From contig OX639991.1 of assembly GCA_951828585.1 (NCBI GenBank), positions 4,198,001 through 4,262,000 on the forward strand: a stretch of DNA of 64,000 nucleotides, given 5' to 3'. This document shows, piece after piece, positions 303 to 10,257 of this stretch. Source of the stretch: Longimicrobiales bacterium (GTDB taxonomy: Bacteria; Gemmatimonadota; Gemmatimonadetes; Longimicrobiales; Gaopeijiaceae). A program made the translations under genes and the position numbers. Within the stretch, counting starts at the first letter, position 1. Every line of letters starts with the position of its first letter. The notes under the pieces were generated by a model, which was not told the origin of the DNA, did not search any database, and saw only the letters and a program-made list of their open reading frames with translations.

Positions 303-1527
303 TAGTGTAGTGTCCGAAACATAATGCACCTATGCTGAGGCGGCTGCGAGCGCCTTCCGGGCCCGCTCCACCTTCTCCAGAATCTGCGCGGCCGACTTCG
401 TCCAGACGAACGGCCGGGGGTCTTGGTTGTAGGTCTCGAGGTACTCCTTCAGACACGATTCGAGGTGGGCGACGGAGTGGAAGACGCCGCGGCGGATCTG
501 CTTCTCGGTCAGCGTGCTGAAGAAGCGCTCGACCAGATTCAGCCACGAAGAGCTGGTCGGGACGAAGTGGAAGTGCACGCGCTTCGTGCCCTCGGCCCAC
601 TCCCTGACCTTGCGGTGCTTGTGGGTCGAGTAGTTGTCCAGGATGATGTGGATCTGCTGCCCCTTCGGCACCTCCTTCACGACCTTGCGGAGGAACCGGA
701 GGAGCTCCTGGTGCCGGTGCCGCCGGTAGGTCTCGCCGATCACCTCGCCCGACGCCACGTCCATCGCGGCGAAGAGCGATGTGGTCCCGTGGCGCTTGTA
801 GTCGTGCGTCATCGTCCCGCAGCGGCCCGGCTTCGGCGGCAGTCCCGGCTGCGTCCGGTCGAGCGCCTGCACCGAACTCTTCTCGCCAAAGCTGAACACC
901 ACCGCGTTGTCCGGCGGGTCAAGGTACAGCGCCACAACGTCTTGCAGCTTCTCCTCGAAGCGCGGATCCGTGCTCACCTTGAAGGTGCGCCACAGATGGG
1001 GCTTCAGCCCCGCCGAGCGCCACACCGTGTTCACGAAGCTGTGCGTCGTGCCCACCGCGCTGGCCATCGACCGGCACGACCAGTGCGTCGCGTCCGGCGG
1101 CTTCTCCCGCGTCGTCCGGCGGATGATCTCCGTCCTCAGCGCCGCCTGCGCCTTCGGGCACCGGCCCCCGTGGTTGCCACCCCGGGGACGCTCCTTCTCG
1201 ATCCCCTCGATCCCCTCGTCCGCGTAGCGCCGCCGCCAGCGGCCCACCTTGTCCGTATGCGTCCCCAACTCCCGGGCGATGGCGACGTTCGTCATCCCGC
1301 CGGCCGCCATCAGCACGATCCGCGACCGCTCCCGCAGCCGCACCGTCGCGCTCCTCGACCGCGACCAGCGCTCCAGAACCTCCCGGTCCCCCTCCGCAAG
1401 CTCGATCCTGACCGCCTTCCGCATTTGGCTCCCCCTCGTTTGCTCAAGGTCTCCCGATCCCGCACGAAGATGGACCATAACCCAAGCCAGCCCGGATTAA
1501 CAGGGGTATATCACGGACACTACACTA
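303..1527 (-). mobile_element. IS630-family insertion sequence
   Basis: A 15-bp perfect inverted repeat, CTAGTGTAGTGTCCG at 302-316 and its complement at 1514-1528, brackets a single transposase gene. Each end carries a TA dinucleotide (303-304 and 1526-1527), as expected for the IS630/Tc1 group, which targets and duplicates TA. The element sits at the point where the minus-strand Big2/LRR gene stops. The sequence beyond its left end does not resume that gene's leucine-rich pattern, so the insertion was probably accompanied by loss of adjacent DNA. Confidence 0.88.
330..1424 (-). CDS. IS630-family transposase, first catalytic Asp replaced
   Basis: This is a 364-residue DDE transposase with an N-terminal helix-turn-helix (about residues 30-75) and an RNase H-like core. 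The ATG at 1424 is preferred over 1478 because a purine-rich GAGGGGGAG lies just before it. The core shows ILDNYSTH (D263) and SSWLNLVERFF (E299). The first catalytic block reads FSFGEKSSVQALDRTQPG, where IS630 relatives have VDEKSQIQALDRTQPG. The catalytic Asp is therefore Gly180 here, while the rest of the block is intact. The reading frame is otherwise complete, so the protein would be made but is expected to be inactive. Confidence 0.9.
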   Translation of the reverse strand: MRKAVRIELAEGDREVLERWSRSRSATVRLRERSRIVLMAAGGMTNVAIARELGTHTDKVGRWRRRYADEGIEGIEKERPRGGNHGGRCPKAQAALRTEIIRRTTREKPPDATHWSCRSMASAVGTTHSFVNTVWRSAGLKPHLWRTFKVSTDPRFEEKLQDVVALYLDPPDNAVVFSFGEKSSVQALDRTQPGLPPKPGRCGTMTHDYKRHGTTSLFAAMDVASGEVIGETYRRHRHQELLRFLRKVVKEVPKGQQIHIILDNYSTHKHRKVREWAEGTKRVHFHFVPTSSSWLNLVERFFSTLTEKQIRRGVFHSVAHLESCLKEYLETYNQDPRPFVWTKSAAQILEKVERARKALAAASA

Positions 1528-2283
1528 GCTTGGCCACCCGGCCCTGTCTGTCCGTATCCACCCCATACCACTCCCCCAGCGGCGCATCCGTCAGCCAGTT
1601 GGTGTTGTCGACCCAGTTCGGACCGTCCGTCGCGTTGTACAACGCCACCAGCGCCGTCCGGTCCGCCGACTGCATGACGGTCACACGCGCTTCACCGGCC
1701 GCGTCCCCCGCCGTCGCCGTGACCGTCACCGCACCATTGCTCACCGCCGTGACCAACCCGGACGTGTCCACCACCCCGACGGTCGTATCAGCGCTCGACC
1801 AGGCAACCGGAACCTCTCCATCGCGCGCCCGGCCTGATCGCGCACCTCGGCGGTGAGCTGCGTGGTTTGTCCCAGCGCGATGAGCACCACCGAGTCGGGG
1901 GTGACGGCGACGGTCGTGGGCACCGGAGCCACAATCGTCAGCTCCGCGCGGCCCGTGAGCCCTGCCGCCGTAGCCGTCACCTGCACCTCTCCCGCACCAA
2001 CCCCGGTCACCAGCCCGGACGTGTCCACCACGGCCACCGCCGTGTTTCCCGACGCCCATACAAACTCGACCCCGCTCACCACCTGTCCGTACGCGTTGGT
2101 GGCGGTCGCCGTCAGCCGCAACGTATCGGCCTCCACAACCGTGGCCGTGGCCGGGCTCACCGTGACGGTGGTGGGCTCAGGGACATCGCGTGGCGGCTCC
2201 GTGGTCCCGTCCCCGCACGCGTACGTCCACAGAGCGACCGATACGATGGCCGAAAGGAACAGCAGCAGTCGTTGACGTCTCAT
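1528..2283 (-). pseudogene. Big2/LRR surface lipoprotein, frameshifted and cut by IS630
   Basis: The gene starts at ATG 2283 with a lipoprotein signal (lipobox WTYAC) followed by at least two bacterial Ig-like Big2 repeats with the motif VVDTSGLVTGVGAGEVQVTA. Near 1815-1822 the frame breaks. The second frame continues in register as VPVAWSSADTTVGVVDTSG, consistent with a 2-bp duplication inside GAGAG. It then enters LVALYNATDGPNWVDNTNW, the usual lead-in to a leucine-rich repeat domain, and is cut by the IS630 end. Two independent lesions and a missing 3' part make it a pseudogene. It was probably an outer-surface adhesion or binding protein. Confidence 0.82.
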
Positions 2284-2446: not shown

Positions 2447-3280
2447 CTACCGTCCCGCGTGCAGCCGGTTGACGAGATTCCTCAGGCAGTACTGTCCGAT
2501 CCGGTTGAGCGCACCCTCCTCGCGCTCCTGCATGATGTGCATCACTAACATCAGCACCGCGGACTGCAGGAGGGCGAGCAGGGTCGTGTAGAACGCCACG
2601 CCGAGGTCGCCGGTGACCTGTTCCATCATCTCCGGACCGATGGACGCTTCGGTGATGCTCGCGCCGGCGAACATGAGCCCGGCCGTGCGCATCGCGAACG
2701 CGATTCCCAGCACCGTGCCGACGAAGCCCAGCGTCGGGATCAGCCAGATCACGTACCTGAGCATGTTGTACCGAAGCTCGATCTCGTGATGGTACAGCTC
2801 GATCGACAGCTCGATCATCGAGGTGACCTGACCGACCGATTCGCTGTTGCGGAACTGGAGGAGCGCGCCGGTCAGCAGGCGCTGCAACAGGTAGCGGCCC
2901 TCGGGATCGGACTCGACCACCCCGTCGTGAATCGCTGTGACATCCCCTTGGCGCAGAACCGTTCGATCGTCCTCGGGAAGCAGTCCCAGTTCGAGCTGGT
3001 TACGTTCCCGGCGGCCCGCCAGGTGGCGCACCACGAGCTCGCCGGCAGCCAGGCAGAACGCGAGCCACATGAGGTTCTGGATCGTGAACGGATATGGGAA
3101 GATGCGGGTGTTTCTGTCGATCAGCAGTTCGGCGCCCACGCTGTCGTCGCCGGCCGGGAACACGTAGGAGAGCACGCCGACGAGGGCGACCGCGAACAGG
3201 AGCGAGCCGAACAGCACCACCGCCCGGAATGGTACGTGATCGTCCCTCGGCGGTCGCCCGGACGCGCTGTCCTTCACCAT
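2447..3280 (-). CDS. TolQ/ExbB/MotA-family proton channel protein
   Basis: The protein has about 277 residues and four predicted membrane segments: two near the N-terminus (VVLFGSLLFAVALVGVL, then NLMWLAFCLAAGELVV), a cytoplasmic loop, and the paired helices LIPTLGFVGTVLGIAF and FYTTLLALLQSAVLMLVM. The PTLGFVGTVLGI motif is the signature of ExbB/TolQ/MotA stator subunits, which conduct protons together with an ExbD/TolR/MotB partner. ATG 3280 is chosen over TTG 3286 because GGTGAG precedes it. The gene follows the pseudokinase gene by 7 bp and is the last gene of a five-gene block. No ExbD or OmpA-type gene is present; the vWA protein at 8026-9012 is the likeliest partner. Substrate or function is unknown. 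Confidence 0.87.
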   Translation of the reverse strand: MVKDSASGRPPRDDHVPFRAVVLFGSLLFAVALVGVLSYVFPAGDDSVGAELLIDRNTRIFPYPFTIQNLMWLAFCLAAGELVVRHLAGRRERNQLELGLLPEDDRTVLRQGDVTAIHDGVVESDPEGRYLLQRLLTGALLQFRNSESVGQVTSMIELSIELYHHEIELRYNMLRYVIWLIPTLGFVGTVLGIAFAMRTAGLMFAGASITEASIGPEMMEQVTGDLGVAFYTTLLALLQSAVLMLVMHIMQEREEGALNRIGQYCLRNLVNRLHAGR

Positions 3281-3287
3281 CGCCAAC

Positions 3288-5705
3288 TCACCGCCCGCCC
3301 GCTTGTTGGTCCGCGCACCTCGGCAGATTCACCCCGTCCATCTGGGGATTGATGCTCGACTCGAAACGACTCAATCCCTCCGGTATGCAACCCGACAGAC
3401 GATTGTGGCTGAGGGACAATCGCTTGAGGTTGCCCAGGTTGCCCAGTTCGGCCGGAATGCTCCCGGAAAGCTGGTTGCGCTCGAGGGACAACACCTCGAG
3501 GCGCGCGAGTCTGCCCAGCGCGGGCGGTATCCGGCCGGCGACCCGCGTGCGCGACAGGAGCAGGCGGCGAAGGTTGCCCAGGTTGCCCAGTTCGGCCGGG
3601 ATGCCGCCGGTCAGCGGGTTGTCATGGAGGTAGAGATCCTCGAGCTGGGAGAGGGAACCCAATTCGGCCGGTATCTCACCGGAAAGAAGATTGCCCTGCA
3701 GATACAGGACCTCAAGCTTGGTCAATCCGCCCAGCTCGGCGGGAATCGCGCCGGAGATCCGATTGTCGGCAAGGTTCAGGTACTGCAGATCCGGCAGATG
3801 CCCCAGCGTCGCGGGAATTTCGCCGTCCAGGACCCGGCCGGCGAGGTCGATACCCGTGACGGCGCCCCCCACCAGTTGCACGCCGGTCCACGACACCCAG
3901 TTCCGGTCGCGGCTCCAGTCCAGCAATCCCATCGTGCCGGCAAGATCGTCCGCGGAGATCAGAAGCACTTCACTATCTCCCTGTGCCAGCGCGAACCGAA
4001 GCCGGGCGTCGGCAAGCCGCTCGGCTTGTGCCAGGTGCTCGGCTTCCGCGCGTTCCTCCTCGGCGAGACGTGCCTCCTCGGCCTGCCGCGCCTCCTCAGC
4101 CAGACGCGCCTCCTCCGCCAAGCGCGCCTCCTCCGCCTGCCGCGCCTCTTCCGCCTGCCGCGCCTCTTCCGCCTGCCGCTCCTCCTCTGCCAGTCGCGCC
4201 TCCTCCGCCAGTCGCGCCTCTTCAAGACGTTCGGCTTCGAGACGCTCCGCCTCCAACCGCTCCGCCTCGAGCCGCTGCTCCTCCAGCTGGCGTTCGAACT
4301 CGAGCCGCTGCTCGTCCGCCGACCGACGTGCTTCGGCCAGTCGCGCCTGCCGGGCTTGCCGCCGCTCTTCCACCAACCGTTGCGCCTCGGCCTCCCGCTC
4401 GGCAGCCAGCCGCGCGTCCTCGGCCTCCTCCGCAACCGCCCGGCCCGCCGTGAACAGCTCCGACAGACTCTCGCGGTCCAGGTAGCCGGTCTCCTCGATT
4501 CCCTGCGCGGCCTGCCACTGCCGCAGTGCCGCGCGGGCTTCCGGTTCGAGCACTCCGTCCGGCTCACCGGAGTAGTGCCCCTCGGCCGACAGACCCGTCT
4601 CGACAAGCTCGATCGTCTCCGGGCCGAGTTCCAGACGGGCCTCCGTCGCGGCAGCCCGCTGCTCCGGCGTGAGCGAGCTGTTGCGCGCCACCGAAATCAT
4701 CACCGCCGCTCCGACGGCGACGAGGGCCACCCCGGTCGCGTAGAACATCCGTCGCCGGTTGATCCGGACCGGCGGGGTCGCGCGCCTCCGCCCACTCGCA
4801 ACCGCGGGCGCGGATCGTCCGGCCGGCATTCCGGACAGCAGGTCCCGCCAGACCCTCAGGTCCCGTGGCCGCGCCGTCTCGTCCATCCGCATCGCGGCTT
4901 CCACCGCGAACGCGAGCGCCGGGTCCACCGGACGCCCGGCGGCCGCCGCGAGATCTGGCAGCGTGTCGCGCCGGGCACGCTCGGCGGCGTATACGGGCTG
5001 CTTGCCCGTCAGTGCGTAGTACCCCACGCCTCCGAGCGCATAGATGTCGCTCCACGGGCCGCGTTCGGCAGTCGGACTGTACTGCTCGATCGGCGCGTAG
5101 CCCGATGAAGGCGCCGTCCAGAGCGACTCCGTGACCGGGCCGACCCGCGATGCCGCCGATCCGAAGCCGACGAGCACGGGCTCGCCGTCCCGCGACCGAA
5201 CCATCACGTTGCCGGGACGGATGTCCAGGTGCAGCAGGCCGAACGCGTGAACCTCGGCCAGCCCGCCCGCGAGCCCCTCCAGCATCCTCCGGACCCTGTC
5301 GTCGGTCAGCGGACCGGCCGCAACCAGCTCCTCCTCGAGGGTGCGCCCCCCTACGTGCTCCGTGACCAGGTACGCGGTGCCGTTCGCCTCGGCCACGCGA
5401 TGCACCCTGGCGATCGCGGGGTGATCGACCCTGGCCAGGATGCGGGCACCCGCCAGGAACCGCTTCAGCCCATCGGCATACGCCGAGGCCCAGTCGGCCG
5501 ACCGGGGACCGACCGTTCCGTCCGCGGCGCGCGCGCCCCAGGCCCGCGGCAGATACTCCGTGATCAGGACCGTGCGATCGAGGTGCGGCTCGCGGGCCAG
5601 GTACGCCGTCGCGACTCCGTCCCCACCCAGTTCGCGCTCGATCCGGTATTCGCCCAGGAGAAGAGTCCCCGGGAGGATGGAATCGGGAGAGGGAATGTCG
5701 GCCAT
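3288..5705 (-). CDS. Membrane pseudokinase with PG-binding, coiled-coil and LRR domains
   Basis: This 805-residue protein starts at ATG 5705, overlapping the previous gene's TGA by one base (TGATG). Residues 15-290 form a Hanks-type Ser/Thr kinase fold. The nucleotide-binding Lys is Thr49 (VLITEYLP, normally VAIKEYLP) and the DFG Asp is Gly180 (VLVGFGSA). The catalytic-loop Asp161 and Asn166 remain (HLDIRPGN). One membrane helix follows at about 320-340, then a peptidoglycan-binding-like domain (about 355-420), a long Glu/Ala/Arg coiled coil (about 425-600) and a C-terminal plant-type LRR array (IPAELGNLGNL units). It probably spans the inner membrane, with the pseudokinase inside and the PG/LRR part in the periplasm. 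It is tightly linked to the proton-channel and SH3 genes. Loss of two key residues argues against catalysis. Confidence 0.87.
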   Translation of the reverse strand: MADIPSPDSILPGTLLLGEYRIERELGGDGVATAYLAREPHLDRTVLITEYLPRAWGARAADGTVGPRSADWASAYADGLKRFLAGARILARVDHPAIARVHRVAEANGTAYLVTEHVGGRTLEEELVAAGPLTDDRVRRMLEGLAGGLAEVHAFGLLHLDIRPGNVMVRSRDGEPVLVGFGSAASRVGPVTESLWTAPSSGYAPIEQYSPTAERGPWSDIYALGGVGYYALTGKQPVYAAERARRDTLPDLAAAAGRPVDPALAFAVEAAMRMDETARPRDLRVWRDLLSGMPAGRSAPAVASGRRRATPPVRINRRRMFYATGVALVAVGAAVMISVARNSSLTPEQRAAATEARLELGPETIELVETGLSAEGHYSGEPDGVLEPEARAALRQWQAAQGIEETGYLDRESLSELFTAGRAVAEEAEDARLAAEREAEAQRLVEERRQARQARLAEARRSADEQRLEFERQLEEQRLEAERLEAERLEAERLEEARLAEEARLAEEERQAEEARQAEEARQAEEARLAEEARLAEEARQAEEARLAEEERAEAEHLAQAERLADARLRFALAQGDSEVLLISADDLAGTMGLLDWSRDRNWVSWTGVQLVGGAVTGIDLAGRVLDGEIPATLGHLPDLQYLNLADNRISGAIPAELGGLTKLEVLYLQGNLLSGEIPAELGSLSQLEDLYLHDNPLTGGIPAELGNLGNLRRLLLSRTRVAGRIPPALGRLARLEVLSLERNQLSGSIPAELGNLGNLKRLSLSHNRLSGCIPEGLSRFESSINPQMDGVNLPRCADQQAGGR

Positions 5706-6775
5706 CAACGACTCCAGACAACCCCGAACCGCGTGCGCGCGCCATCGCGGTCGACGAAGAGGCTGACGGGCGAACCGAAGGCCGATGATGCCGGATGCAT
5801 GGAAAGCGACCTGGTCCGCGTGAGTTCCTCGACCTCGCCCATCTTCTGCGAGGCCAGAATCCATTGAGCGAAGCCCCAGACACCCAGGACGCCACCGACG
5901 CCCGTGATCCAGTTTCTGGCCCTTTCGGCCTTGTCCCGCTTGTTGACGGCGTCCTGGAACTCCGAAGCGCTCTCAAAGTCCTCGGGCACCGGATCCGAGA
6001 AGTACGGAACCCACTCGACCGTCGCGAAGGAGGCGCCGGCCAGCAGGGCGCCCCAGAACACCTTGCGTCTTCCCAAGGAACGGCTCAGCGACGCTTCGGC
6101 GTACTGTCGGTCGAGGGTCGGGGTCGTTGCTTCCGGGAATTCCCGCTCCAGTTCGGCCATCTTGCGCCACCCCAGGACGTAGCGGCCGATGCCGTAGGTG
6201 GCCAGGGCCGCGCCCCCGATGATGGCCAGTTTCTTGACTGACGCGGCGCTTTCTTGCTTGTCCAGCGCGGCCTGGTACGCGGCCTCGTCCTCGTATTGTT
6301 CCCGGTCCTCCACCTCGAAAGCAATCGAGATGGTCACCTCCGCCGTGGCCGCCAGTCCCGCGCCCAGGGCCGCTCGCTTGAGTCCCGCCGCCCGGTTCGC
6401 CTTGGCGGTCGCGTGTTGCTCCGCGACGCCCGGTATCGCCATGCCGCCGCCGGACGCTCCCGGCGAAACTGGCGTTGCCGCCCCCACCACGGAGACTTCG
6501 CTGGCCAGCACGTACCCGACCAGATTCTCCTGGCCCGGCGGTCCGGGAACGGACACGGCGAAATAGGGGCCGTATTCGCCGACCCATTCCAGCACCGTGC
6601 CGGCCGCCAGCGTGGTGATGACCGGGCTCGCGTCGTTGGGATCGAGCCTGACGACGGTCTCATTGGCGACGACTTCGACCTGCTGCGCCGAGGCCGCCTC
6701 CGACGCGGGACCGGCCGCAAGGAACGACATCCAGACGGCGACCTGAAACAGGATGCTACCTCGCGTTGTCTTCAT
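5705..6775 (-). CDS. SH3-like exported protein with duplicated membrane module
   Basis: This 356-residue protein has an N-terminal signal (ILFQVAVWMSFLAAGPASEA) and then an SH3-like domain (VRLDPNDASPVITTLAAGT, EWVGEYGPYFAVSV, YVLASEV). Four hydrophobic segments follow, arranged as two copies of a module. Each module has a helix ending near EWVPYF or its equivalent, an acidic PVPEDFES-type linker, a KRDKAERARN helix and a second helix ending GVWGFAQWILA. ATG 6775 is chosen because it opens directly into the signal peptide; the longer upstream frame has no such feature. It is a paralogue of the next upstream gene and overlaps the pseudokinase start by one base. The SH3-like part may bind cell-wall peptide, and the membrane module loosely resembles DUF5683-type pairs. 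Function is unknown. Confidence 0.8.
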   Translation of the reverse strand: MKTTRGSILFQVAVWMSFLAAGPASEAASAQQVEVVANETVVRLDPNDASPVITTLAAGTVLEWVGEYGPYFAVSVPGPPGQENLVGYVLASEVSVVGAATPVSPGASGGGMAIPGVAEQHATAKANRAAGLKRAALGAGLAATAEVTISIAFEVEDREQYEDEAAYQAALDKQESAASVKKLAIIGGAALATYGIGRYVLGWRKMAELEREFPEATTPTLDRQYAEASLSRSLGRRKVFWGALLAGASFATVEWVPYFSDPVPEDFESASEFQDAVNKRDKAERARNWITGVGGVLGVWGFAQWILASQKMGEVEELTRTRSLSMHPASSAFGSPVSLFVDRDGARTRFGVVWSR

Positions 6776-6822
6776 GTTCCAATGCCTTTCGTGATTTTTT
6801 CGTGTGCGACACATGGCAGTCC

Positions 6823-7917
6823 TCACCATCTCAAGCCGATTCCGAACTCGGTGCGGGCGCCCCGGCGATTCGCGAACAGTTCGACCGGTACCTCTGCGAC
6901 GGAGGGTCCGAGCGGAACGGAGAGCGCCGCCATCCTGGCGGTTGCCTCGATCCGGGACATCCTCCGGGCCCCGAGCACCCACTGCGTCACGCCCCATCCG
7001 CCCAGGCCGGCCCCCAACATGTAAGCCCACGTCCTGGCGGACTCGGCCCGGTCCCGCCTGGACTCTGCCGCCCGGAAATCTTCCGGATCGTCGAAGTCCT
7101 CCATGTCGGGAGCATCGAAGTACGGAACCCACTCGACCGTCCCGTACGCGACGAGCGGCAGCAGGACGGCCCAGACCAACTTGCGCTTGCCGGAGGAACG
7201 CATCCTGAACGCATCGGCGTACTGCTCCTGCAGCGACGGGCCCGCCGTCCGCGGCAGTTCGAGTTCCAGACTCCGCATGTTCCGCCAACTCATTGTGACC
7301 TGCGCGACTCCCCAGGCGCCCAATGCCGCGCCCAGCCCCGTGGCGACGGTTCTGGCGGTCTCCGCCGCATCGCGCCGGTCCAGCGCGCTCTGGTAGGATT
7401 CGGCGTCCTCGAAGTCTTCGGGGACCGGTACCTGCAACGGAGGCACGAACTCAAGGGCCGCGTACGAGCCGCCGATGATGGCGAGGCTCCAGATCACCTT
7501 GCGCACGCCCGACGTGCGACGCCGCCGCTGGTCCTCGTATTGCGCCTCCAGCCCCGGAACGCCGATCAACGTGCCCGGCACGCCCGTCGGCACTGGGGCG
7601 ACGGGCGGCGGCACCCCCGCGCCCACCAATTCGACCTCGCTGGCCAGTACATAGCCGATGACGTCGTCTTCGCCGGGAGGACCCGCGACCGACACGGCAT
7701 ACCACGCGCCCGACTCGCCGACCCAGTCGAGCAGCGTCCCGGAGGCCATCGTGGTTATGACCGGGCTCGTTTCGCTGGGATCCAGCCTGACCTCGGTGCC
7801 GTCGGCGAGGATACGAACCTGCTGGCCACCGGCATCCGCGGGGAGGACCGCGACCAGAATCAGCATCACGGCCGCGGCCCTCATTGCCGCGGGAATGGAT
7901 TGGAGATGATCCGGCAT
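6823..7917 (-). CDS. SH3-like exported protein with duplicated membrane module (paralogue)
   Basis: This 364-residue protein has the same architecture as the gene 47 bp downstream: a signal peptide (AAAVMLILVAVLPADAGG), an SH3-like domain (VRLDPSETSPVITTMASGT, DWVGESGAWYAVSV, YVLASEVELVG), a Pro-rich spacer and two membrane modules (EFVPPLQVPVPEDFED and EWVPYFDAPDMEDFDD, each followed by LGAWG or LGGWG helices). The ATG at 7917 has a GGAGG 10 bases upstream, which decides the start. The two paralogues are adjacent, same-strand and clearly diverged, so this is an old tandem duplication kept in the block rather than a recent one. Its role is unknown. Confidence 0.8.
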   Translation of the reverse strand: MPDHLQSIPAAMRAAAVMLILVAVLPADAGGQQVRILADGTEVRLDPSETSPVITTMASGTLLDWVGESGAWYAVSVAGPPGEDDVIGYVLASEVELVGAGVPPPVAPVPTGVPGTLIGVPGLEAQYEDQRRRRTSGVRKVIWSLAIIGGSYAALEFVPPLQVPVPEDFEDAESYQSALDRRDAAETARTVATGLGAALGAWGVAQVTMSWRNMRSLELELPRTAGPSLQEQYADAFRMRSSGKRKLVWAVLLPLVAYGTVEWVPYFDAPDMEDFDDPEDFRAAESRRDRAESARTWAYMLGAGLGGWGVTQWVLGARRMSRIEATARMAALSVPLGPSVAEVPVELFANRRGARTEFGIGLRW

Positions 7918-8025
7918 CGGTGGGTTTCCTCCAGAATCAGGGCGAGAGAGCAATGCACGTTCCCGACCGGCTCGAAGCCGGGGCGCGAACGCGTACGAGA
8001 TCGTCATGGCTACATACGGTCGGCA

Positions 8026-9012
8026 TCACAACAGTGAGAGCAGGAGGTTGACGGTCAGCGAGCCGCCGACGTCGCGTACGAACTGACCCCCTCCGGCGTT
8101 GGCCACCGACTGCAGGAAAGCCTCCACCTGAGGATCGGCCAGGCCCTGCGAGTTGATGTAGACCGTGGAGACCCGGTGGCCGGGGAGCCGCCCGATCGCG
8201 GCGGCGGTGGCAATGGACCGGTTCACCTGATCGGGGTAGGCGGGCTGGTCGGTCACAAGAACGATGACCCTCTTCTCGGCCTCGGGCCGCCACGGCATGC
8301 GCGCCGCCTCCGTCAGCGCCTCCAGGAACGCCTCCGGCGGGTCGTCGTTGCCGCCGCGACCCAGGCCCATCCGCACGTCAAGGTTGTTCACGAACCCCCT
8401 GAACGCTGCCCGCTCCAACGTGGGGCCGGAGATCCTCCGCAGGGAGAACGTCGTCGTGGGCCTATCCCATTGGCGGTCTCCGAACGCGACCAGACCGATG
8501 GCGAAGCTGGGTGCCATCCGGCTCAGGAGGTCGCTCAGCTGTCCCACTTCGGCCTTGAGGGCGGCTACTTGCGGTCCCATGCTGCTGGTGATATCAAGGG
8601 CGATGACGAGGTCCAGGTGGGGCAGTTGGTAGGTCGCGGTCGGCAGTGCGGGGTCTGGATCGGGTGCGGGACACGGCACCGGATCGGGAATCGGCGGGCA
8701 TACCGGGCAGTCGACGGGCGCGGGGCCGGCCGGCGGTGTTTCGGGCACGGTGGCGACGGGCGCGGGGGCCGGTGAAGGGGTGGCAACCGGCGGTAGCGGC
8801 AGGGGCAAGGCGGGGCACACGGGACAGACGATCGGTTCCGGGCACGGAGTCGCGGCCAGCAGCGGGATCGGCTCCGCGGGCTCGGACCGCGAGGCGTCGG
8901 TGATGAGGGGGAAGATGATGATTGAGATCAGGATGAACGCGCCGAGCGCGGAGGCGAAGAGGTCCAGCGACGACATGCCGAAGAGGCTCAGTTCCCTGCT
9001 CTTGCGTCTCAT
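8026..9012 (-). CDS. Membrane-anchored von Willebrand factor A protein
   Basis: This 328-residue protein opens with a short cytoplasmic tail and one N-terminal membrane helix preceded by SSLDLFASALGAFILIS, a topology like ExbD/MotB partners of proton channels. A Pro/Cys-rich stretch with repeated CPVCP units (about residues 55-130) leads to a vWA domain. The vWA domain has the metal-site motif LDITSSMG, a downstream TLERAAF segment and VIVLVTDQPAY. ATG 9012 is used. The gene starts the five-gene block, 108 bp before the first SH3 gene. The SLDLF Asp at the membrane edge could be a proton-site residue, which is an inference. The paired Cys motifs could form disulphides or bind metal. Confidence 0.85.
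   Translation of the reverse strand: MRRKSRELSLFGMSSLDLFASALGAFILISIIIFPLITDASRSEPAEPIPLLAATPCPEPIVCPVCPALPLPLPPVATPSPAPAPVATVPETPPAGPAPVDCPVCPPIPDPVPCPAPDPDPALPTATYQLPHLDLVIALDITSSMGPQVAALKAEVGQLSDLLSRMAPSFAIGLVAFGDRQWDRPTTTFSLRRISGPTLERAAFRGFVNNLDVRMGLGRGGNDDPPEAFLEALTEAARMPWRPEAEKRVIVLVTDQPAYPDQVNRSIATAAAIGRLPGHRVSTVYINSQGLADPQVEAFLQSVANAGGGQFVRDVGGSLTVNLLLSLL

Positions 9013-9117: not shown

Positions 9118-10257
<1,140 letters not shown>

What the first reader, a model, noticed from the sequence alone, without database searches (positions are those of the whole stretch)
2447..9012. Five-gene block that may form an undescribed proton-driven envelope machine
Five minus-strand genes sit with gaps of -1 to 108 bp: a vWA protein with one N-terminal membrane helix, two SH3-like membrane proteins, a membrane pseudokinase with PG-binding/coiled-coil/LRR parts, and a TolQ/ExbB/MotA-type channel. 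Stator channels normally pair with ExbD/TolR/MotB proteins that have one N-terminal helix and a periplasmic wall-binding domain; here the vWA protein has that topology (SLDLF before the helix). The PG-binding domain sits on the pseudokinase and SH3 domains on two other members, so every part of a wall-anchored, proton-powered device is present but in a combination I do not recognise (compare Zorya ZorA/ZorB and Tol-Pal).
Basis: partly seen in the sequence, partly recalled or inferred. Interest (0 to 1): 0.88.

Follow-up and report, generated by a model that had tools for sequence, protein, structure and literature searches.

The report
TolQ-type motor with adhesion-domain partner
In a group of Gemmatimonadota bacteria, four linked gene families (one duplicated here) appear to build a proton-powered membrane motor in which an integrin-like adhesion domain replaces the usual wall-binding partner; the core idea was predicted in 2025, but this version, with its extra cell-wall proteins and decaying kinase, has not been described.

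Summary
The five genes are real, intact and under purifying selection (dN/dS 0.14-0.29). The channel, the vWA protein and the SH3 protein occur in the same genomes: about 20 genomes of one genus plus 2 of a sister genus. They stay linked in three different gene arrangements with different flanking genes, which argues for a functional unit. Its Asp17 motif (LDxxxxALGxF) is invariant. It persists in a Rhizobium relative where the channel is 41% identical but the vWA domain is replaced, and no ExbD/TolR lies next to the channel. The idea is not new: Mol Biol Evol 2025 (PMC12204202) predicted a 'TPH-vWA' family as the dimeric partner of TolQ-like pentamers in Proteobacteria and Verrucomicrobia. 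What is new here is the phylum, a single vWA instead of a pair, and obligate SH3 and PG-binding/coiled-coil/LRR companions. The kinase is not core: it is catalytically dead here, lacks its C-lobe in two relatives and is absent from the other arrangements. No evidence ties the block to phage defence. Best reading: a force-transducing envelope motor, a new variant of a known (predicted) kind. The complex itself could not be modelled.

The parts
2447..3280 (-). TolQ/ExbB/MotA-superfamily channel, 277 aa from the ATG at 3280 (279 from the upstream TTG). Four hydrophobic segments. Pore-type Thr191 (GTV in TM3) and Thr235 (TTLLAL in TM4), numbered from the TTG.
   Evidence: Pfam MotA_ExbB 4.6e-9; 76-84% identity in relatives; both Thr invariant in relatives down to 30% identity
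3288..5705 (-). Single-TM protein: cytoplasmic pseudokinase, TM helix, PG-binding domain, E/A/R-rich coiled coil, LRR
   Evidence: Pfam; TM and kinase motifs
4809..5666 (-). Pseudokinase domain: VAIK Lys to Thr, DFG to GFG. C-lobe missing in L009 and L040; domain not detected in arrangements b and c
4464..4763 (-). TM helix (4689-4763) and PG_binding_1 domain (4464-4613) of the same protein; conserved in all arrangements
3339..3857 (-). Leucine-rich repeats of the same protein; conserved in all arrangements
5705..6775 (-). SH3b-domain protein (second paralog): signal peptide, bacterial SH3 domain, two helical hairpins, C-terminal beta hairpin
6823..7917 (-). SH3b-domain protein (first paralog), same architecture
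8026..9012 (-). TPH-vWA protein, 328 aa: N-terminal pore-type helix, Cys/Pro-rich periplasmic linker (6 Cys; 32 Pro in residues 41-130), vWA domain
   Evidence: Pfam VWA 3.2e-6
8902..8982 (-). Transpore-type helix FGMSSLDLFASALGAFILISIIIFPLI, residues 11-37; Asp17 codon at 8962-8964
   Evidence: Asp17, Ala22, Leu23, Gly24 and Phe26 invariant also in L059 and in Rhizobium L068
8095..8613 (-). vWA domain with an intact MIDAS of integrin-beta type (D140, T142, S144, E227, D255)
   Evidence: these residues invariant in 15 of 15; integrin beta-8 profile match 1.7e-6

Best explanation
The block encodes a proton-powered (ion-powered) envelope motor of the 5:2 TolQ/ExbB/MotA type. Five copies of the channel form the pore; two vWA proteins place their N-terminal helices in it, where Asp17 against a ring of Thr191 and Thr235 takes up and releases protons. 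Ion flow turns or pulls the helix pair and, through Cys/Pro-rich linkers, moves two metal-binding (MIDAS) adhesion heads in the periplasm. The SH3 protein and the PG-binding/coiled-coil/LRR protein are obligate companions that most likely tie the machine to peptidoglycan or present the ligand pulled by the vWA heads. The pseudokinase on the cytoplasmic end of the LRR protein is a decaying, lineage-specific part. Shown: the domains, the invariant helix Asp and pore Thr, the intact MIDAS, absence of an adjacent ExbD/TolR, co-occurrence and rearranged-but-retained linkage, purifying selection. Inferred: 5:2 assembly, proton flow, force on an envelope ligand, the roles of the SH3 and LRR proteins.
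For: Linkage of vWA, SH3, PGB-LRR and channel kept in three arrangements (all codirectional in two different orders; vWA convergent in a third) with mostly differing neighbours. Co-occurrence: channel in 20 of 395 phylum genomes and SH3 protein in 18 of 246 class genomes, all of them genomes that carry the vWA protein; the two strong vWA genomes without a channel hit (G035, G163) have the vWA gene at a contig end. Helix motif with invariant Asp17 shared with a Rhizobium protein encoded next to a 41%-identical channel, although its periplasmic domain is not vWA: the helix, not the vWA domain, goes with the channel. Related channels in Anabaena, G006 and genus g7 are likewise next to single-TM partners with an S-x-[LM]-D helix pattern. 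The two Thr positions are kept in the aligned relatives and in the genome's canonical channels. Own genome: ExbD genes lie beside two other, canonical channels; the fourth ExbD hit is a 121-aa lipoprotein-like ORF with no such helix. dN/dS 0.14 (vWA) and 0.19 (channel). An independent published AF3 prediction exists for the same arrangement in other phyla.
Against: No complex could be modelled; the monomer model of the channel is unusable (pLDDT 51). No sequence of the published TPH-vWA family was at hand to show homology. Four hydrophobic segments in the channel recall MotA rather than the three of TolQ. Nothing here shows ion flow, and the ligand is unknown. One canonical-type channel of the own genome (L001) also lacks an adjacent ExbD, so absence of a neighbouring ExbD is not proof by itself.
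Confidence: 0.7

Rival explanations
1. Anti-phage defence motor (Zorya-like): the envelope complex senses phage entry and triggers an effector.
For: ZorA profiles give weak partial matches to the channel (3.8e-5). A related channel with two helix partners sits beside a type III-B CRISPR cassette with a CARF-HEPN gene and near a viperin gene in Anabaena.
Against: No ZorB, nuclease, helicase or other effector seen with the block. No PADLOC match for the vWA or SH3 proteins. Present in most genomes of the genus (20 of 23), unlike a patchy defence island. Neighbours in the window are transposase-like ORFs, an FG-GAP repeat protein and a catalase-peroxidase-like gene.
Confidence: 0.1
2. Signal-transduction device: the channel/vWA complex feeds envelope or wall state into Ser/Thr phospho-signalling.
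For: Pseudokinase in the window lineage; in Rhizobium the channel/helix pair sits among a Ser/Thr kinase with PDZ domains, an FHA protein and a PP2C phosphatase; the distant TPH-vWA of G171 is followed by an FHA-domain ORF (E 3.4e-15).
Against: In the Gemmatimonadota block the kinase is dead, C-terminally deleted in two relatives and absent in the other lineages, which keep the rest.
Confidence: 0.15
3. The vWA protein is a TolA/TonB-like side-binding transducer and a separate ExbD fills the pore.
For: A SHLS-type vWA transducer family exists and is linked to tolQR-like genes.
Against: No SHLS motif in the helix and no tolR/exbD seen in the loci; instead an Asp-bearing helix.
Confidence: 0.05

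Closest known systems
TPH-vWA / TolQ-like motors (second vWA family of PMC12204202, Mol Biol Evol 2025)
   Same: tolQ-like gene next to a vWA gene, no tolR/exbD, N-terminal helix with the proton-binding Asp and no SHLS motif, conserved Thr in the channel
   Different: Gemmatimonadota (not mentioned in the paper's main text), a single vWA rather than heterologous pairs, a Cys/Pro linker, and obligate SH3b and PGB/coiled-coil/LRR companions not mentioned in that paper's text
Rhizobium leguminosarum pRlBT01d locus (L068)
   Same: 41% identical channel and the same helix motif LDLFASALGGF
   Different: The partner has another periplasmic domain without a Pfam assignment; the neighbours are an apparently complete kinase, FHA, PP2C and a very large unrelated protein
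Zorya ZorA/ZorB
   Same: Predicted 5:2 ion motor; pore Asp and Ser/Thr ring; a peptidoglycan-binding part belongs to the machine
   Different: No OmpA-like ZorB, no long ZorA tail, no ZorC/D/E
Tol-Pal (TolQ/TolR) and Ton (ExbB/ExbD)
   Same: Channel superfamily; one-helix partner with a pore Asp
   Different: No TolR, TolA, TolB or Pal; TM4 lacks the GLxxAIP signature seen in the genome's own three canonical channels

Membership tests
TPH-vWA motor (PMC12204202) | tolQ-like gene linked to a TM-tethered vWA gene | tested here: met
TPH-vWA motor (PMC12204202) | no syntenic tolR/exbD | tested here: met
   none of the four ExbD hits of the genome lies at this locus; none seen in the relatives read in full
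TPH-vWA motor (PMC12204202) | transpore helix with conserved Asp, no SHLS motif | tested here: met
   Asp17 invariant
TPH-vWA motor (PMC12204202) | ring of Thr in the channel | tested here: met
   Thr191 and Thr235 invariant in the family; that they form a ring is inferred
TPH-vWA motor (PMC12204202) | vWA genes predominantly in heterologous pairs | tested here: not met
   one vWA per locus; described as predominant, not universal
TPH-vWA motor (PMC12204202) | sequence homology to the Idiomarina family | not tested
   no member sequence available in the collections searched
TPH-vWA motor (PMC12204202) | helix dimer inside a channel pentamer | not testable with these tools
   no multimer prediction; monomer pLDDT 51
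Zorya | ZorA with long cytoplasmic tail | tested here: not met
   277 aa; weak partial ZorA match
Zorya | ZorB with OmpA-like PG-binding domain | tested here: not met
   partner carries vWA instead
Zorya | ZorC/ZorD or ZorE effector | tested here: not met
   none among the five genes; none noticed in the ORFs read beside them
Tol-Pal | TolR, TolA, TolB and Pal genes with TolQ | tested here: not met
SHLS vWA transducers (first vWA family of PMC12204202) | SHLS motif and accompanying tolR-like genes | tested here: not met
Active Ser/Thr kinase (PknB-like) | VAIK Lys and DFG Asp | tested here: not met
   Thr and Gly at these positions

The most novel reading that the evidence does not exclude
A family of ion-driven motors in which the pore helix is the constant part and the periplasmic head is interchangeable (vWA adhesion head, another head in Rhizobium, paired heads in Anabaena and G006), each with its own envelope and signalling companions; the Gemmatimonadota version is an integrin-like pulling or adhesion machine anchored to the wall by SH3 and LRR proteins.
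Probability: 0.45. Interest if true: 0.78.

Novelty: new variant of a known kind. Interest (0 to 1): 0.58.

Why it matters
5:2 ion motors power flagella, gliding, nutrient uptake, outer-membrane upkeep and phage defence. A version that drives a metal-dependent adhesion head directly would add force-loaded binding to that list. Conserved companion proteins give concrete candidates for its wall anchor and ligand, which the 2025 prediction lacked. The shared pore-helix motif suggests how further motors could be found whatever their periplasmic domain.

Tried and rejected
AlphaFold2 monomer of the channel from 13 close relatives: pLDDT 51, not used for any fold search. IMG/VR scans with the helix and channel profiles and a phage search with the channel: nothing. 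Two weak helix-profile hits in family f6 (L088, L089) are unrelated multi-helix membrane proteins. Plasmid hits with the vWA domain alone cover only part of that domain, not the helix. No channel found in G171 beside its TPH-vWA; that genome is 830 contigs and 88% complete, so inconclusive. Kinase as part of the core: rejected. Zorya membership: rejected.

Full report
OBSERVATION. The window lies at 4,198,001-4,262,000 of a single-contig 4.47 Mb genome; the nearest named relative is a Gemmatimonadetes MAG. The five minus-strand genes are intact. Translation, homologous starts and the sequence around the starts place them at 9012-8026 (vWA), 7917-6823 (SH3a), 6775-5705 (SH3b), 5705-3288 (pseudokinase/PG-binding/coiled coil/LRR) and 3280-2447 (channel), with gaps of 108, 47, -1 and 7 bp. 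The SH3 part of a model of moderate confidence matches solved bacterial SH3 domains.

CONSERVATION. A search of 295 genomes of the class found strong vWA relatives in 20 of 23 genomes of the genus and in two genomes of a sister genus (g4), plus a distant one (31% identity) in a third genus. Reading the loci showed that the parts stay together in three arrangements: (a) vWA-SH3-SH3-kinase/PGB/LRR-channel, in the window, L009 and L040; (b) SH3-PGB/LRR-channel-vWA, codirectional, in L042 and L043; (c) SH3-PGB/LRR-channel with vWA convergent, in most of the genus. Neighbours on both sides mostly differ. A profile of the channel found it in 20 of 395 phylum genomes, and a profile of the SH3 protein found it in 18 of 246 class genomes; every one of these genomes carries the vWA protein. 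Linkage that survives rearrangement, with co-occurrence, is good evidence for one functional unit. Window against L009 gives dN/dS of 0.14 for vWA, 0.19 channel, 0.20 PGB/LRR, 0.28 and 0.29 for the SH3 proteins.

THE CORE IS SMALLER THAN FIVE. Arrangements b and c have one SH3 protein and an LRR protein that starts just before the TM helix, with no kinase domain. In the window the kinase lacks the VAIK lysine and the DFG aspartate, and in L009 and L040 the match stops at the middle of the domain (the L009 ORF is 655 aa). So the pseudokinase was gained, or kept, in one lineage and is eroding; the second SH3 gene is a duplication seen in the same lineage. The core is SH3 protein, TM/PGB/coiled-coil/LRR protein, channel, vWA protein.

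THE vWA PROTEIN AS PORE PARTNER. It has a basic N-terminus, one helix and a long periplasmic part. The helix reads FGMSSLDLFASALGAFILI; Asp17 is invariant in all 15 aligned members including the 31% relative. The decisive comparison came from a Rhizobium leguminosarum plasmid: its channel is 41% identical over 93% of the window channel, and the next gene begins MRRPNRNIEIFSMSVLDLFASALGGFIMIAIILFP but continues into a different periplasmic domain. The helix is thus what travels with the channel. Further relatives of the channel in Anabaena (L069), G006 (L109) and genus g7 (L110, L111) are next to one or two single-TM proteins, of which at least one in each locus has the related pattern S-x-[LM]-D...G. 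The channel has two Thr, in GTV of TM3 and TTLLAL of TM4, at the positions that by alignment correspond to the conserved Thr of the genome's own canonical channels. In a small unrooted tree of the TM3-TM4 region (136 columns) the three canonical channels separate from all the others with 100% support. The genome's ExbD genes sit by two other channels; the fourth ExbD hit is a lipoprotein-like ORF.

THE HEAD. The vWA domain keeps the MIDAS residues (D140, T142, S144, E227, D255 invariant), and its best matches among solved structures are integrin beta subunits (1.7e-6). Which residues form the MIDAS is assigned from the integrin alignment and general knowledge of the fold. The linker of window residues 41-130 has 32 Pro and 6 Cys, in repeated CPxCP-like motifs; disulphide links between the two chains are possible but untested. 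In the distant G171 protein the linker looks like a coiled coil instead.

MECHANISM (inferred from the 5:2 motors). Five channels around two vWA helices; proton passage by Asp17 against the Thr ring; rotation or pulling of adhesion heads in the periplasm; SH3 and PGB/LRR proteins as wall anchors or ligands. The parts are shown; assembly, ion flow and ligand are not. Channel topology (four hydrophobic segments) recalls MotA.

WHAT IS KNOWN. [quoted passage not shown] It reports them mainly from Proteobacteria and Verrucomicrobia and mostly as heterologous pairs; its main text does not mention Gemmatimonadota, SH3 or LRR partners. Every defining feature I could test is met, save the pairing, which the paper gives as predominant rather than universal; homology to its type sequence was not tested. 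I therefore file the block as working like that system and probably a new variant of it. Zorya, Tol-Pal and the SHLS-type vWA transducers each fail a tested defining feature.

RIVALS. A defence role has little support: no effector and no defence neighbours noticed, and presence in most of the genus. A signalling role draws on the Rhizobium kinase/FHA/PP2C neighbours, the FHA ORF beside the distant G171 vWA and the pseudokinase here, but the pseudokinase is being lost in this group.

VERDICT. Interest 0.58.

Noticed in passing
L069 4174-8364 (Anabaena cylindrica plasmid NC_019773): A TolQ-like channel with a C-terminal extension and two different single-TM partners sits directly behind type III-B CRISPR genes and a CARF-HEPN (Csx1-type) gene, about 3.5 kb before a viperin-family gene: a possible CRISPR-associated membrane motor.
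   Followed up: partly
L109 6970-9582 (G006): The same channel plus heterologous pair of one-helix partners in a Gemmatimonadota genome; no CRISPR genes noticed among the ORFs read beside it, which look like malate dehydrogenase and succinate dehydrogenase genes.
   Followed up: partly
L110 6973-9072 and L111 6412-8484: Genus g7: channel with a coiled-coil-like C-terminal extension next to a partner with helix LDSLMDILSCLVGVMLFLVI and no Pfam domain.
   Followed up: partly
L068 2430-14943 (Rhizobium leguminosarum pRlBT01d): Ser/Thr kinase with PDZ domains, FHA protein, PP2C phosphatase, channel and pore-helix protein in one cluster, followed by a 1610-aa Gly/Ser-rich protein; this record was the only channel hit of the window protein among 72,556 plasmid records.
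   Followed up: partly
window 330-2283: An Ig-like/LRR lipoprotein gene downstream of the channel looks frameshifted and cut by a transposase gene (330-1478); longer relatives follow the channel in L009 and L040, so it may be a lost sixth member in this lineage.
   Followed up: partly
window 9130-10257: Transposase-like ORF (IS110-type by eye) just upstream of the vWA gene on the opposite strand; with the element at 330-1478 it brackets the block.
   Followed up: no
L059 3935-5090 (G171): Distant TPH-vWA with a coiled-coil-like linker, followed by an FHA-domain ORF at the contig end.
   Followed up: partly
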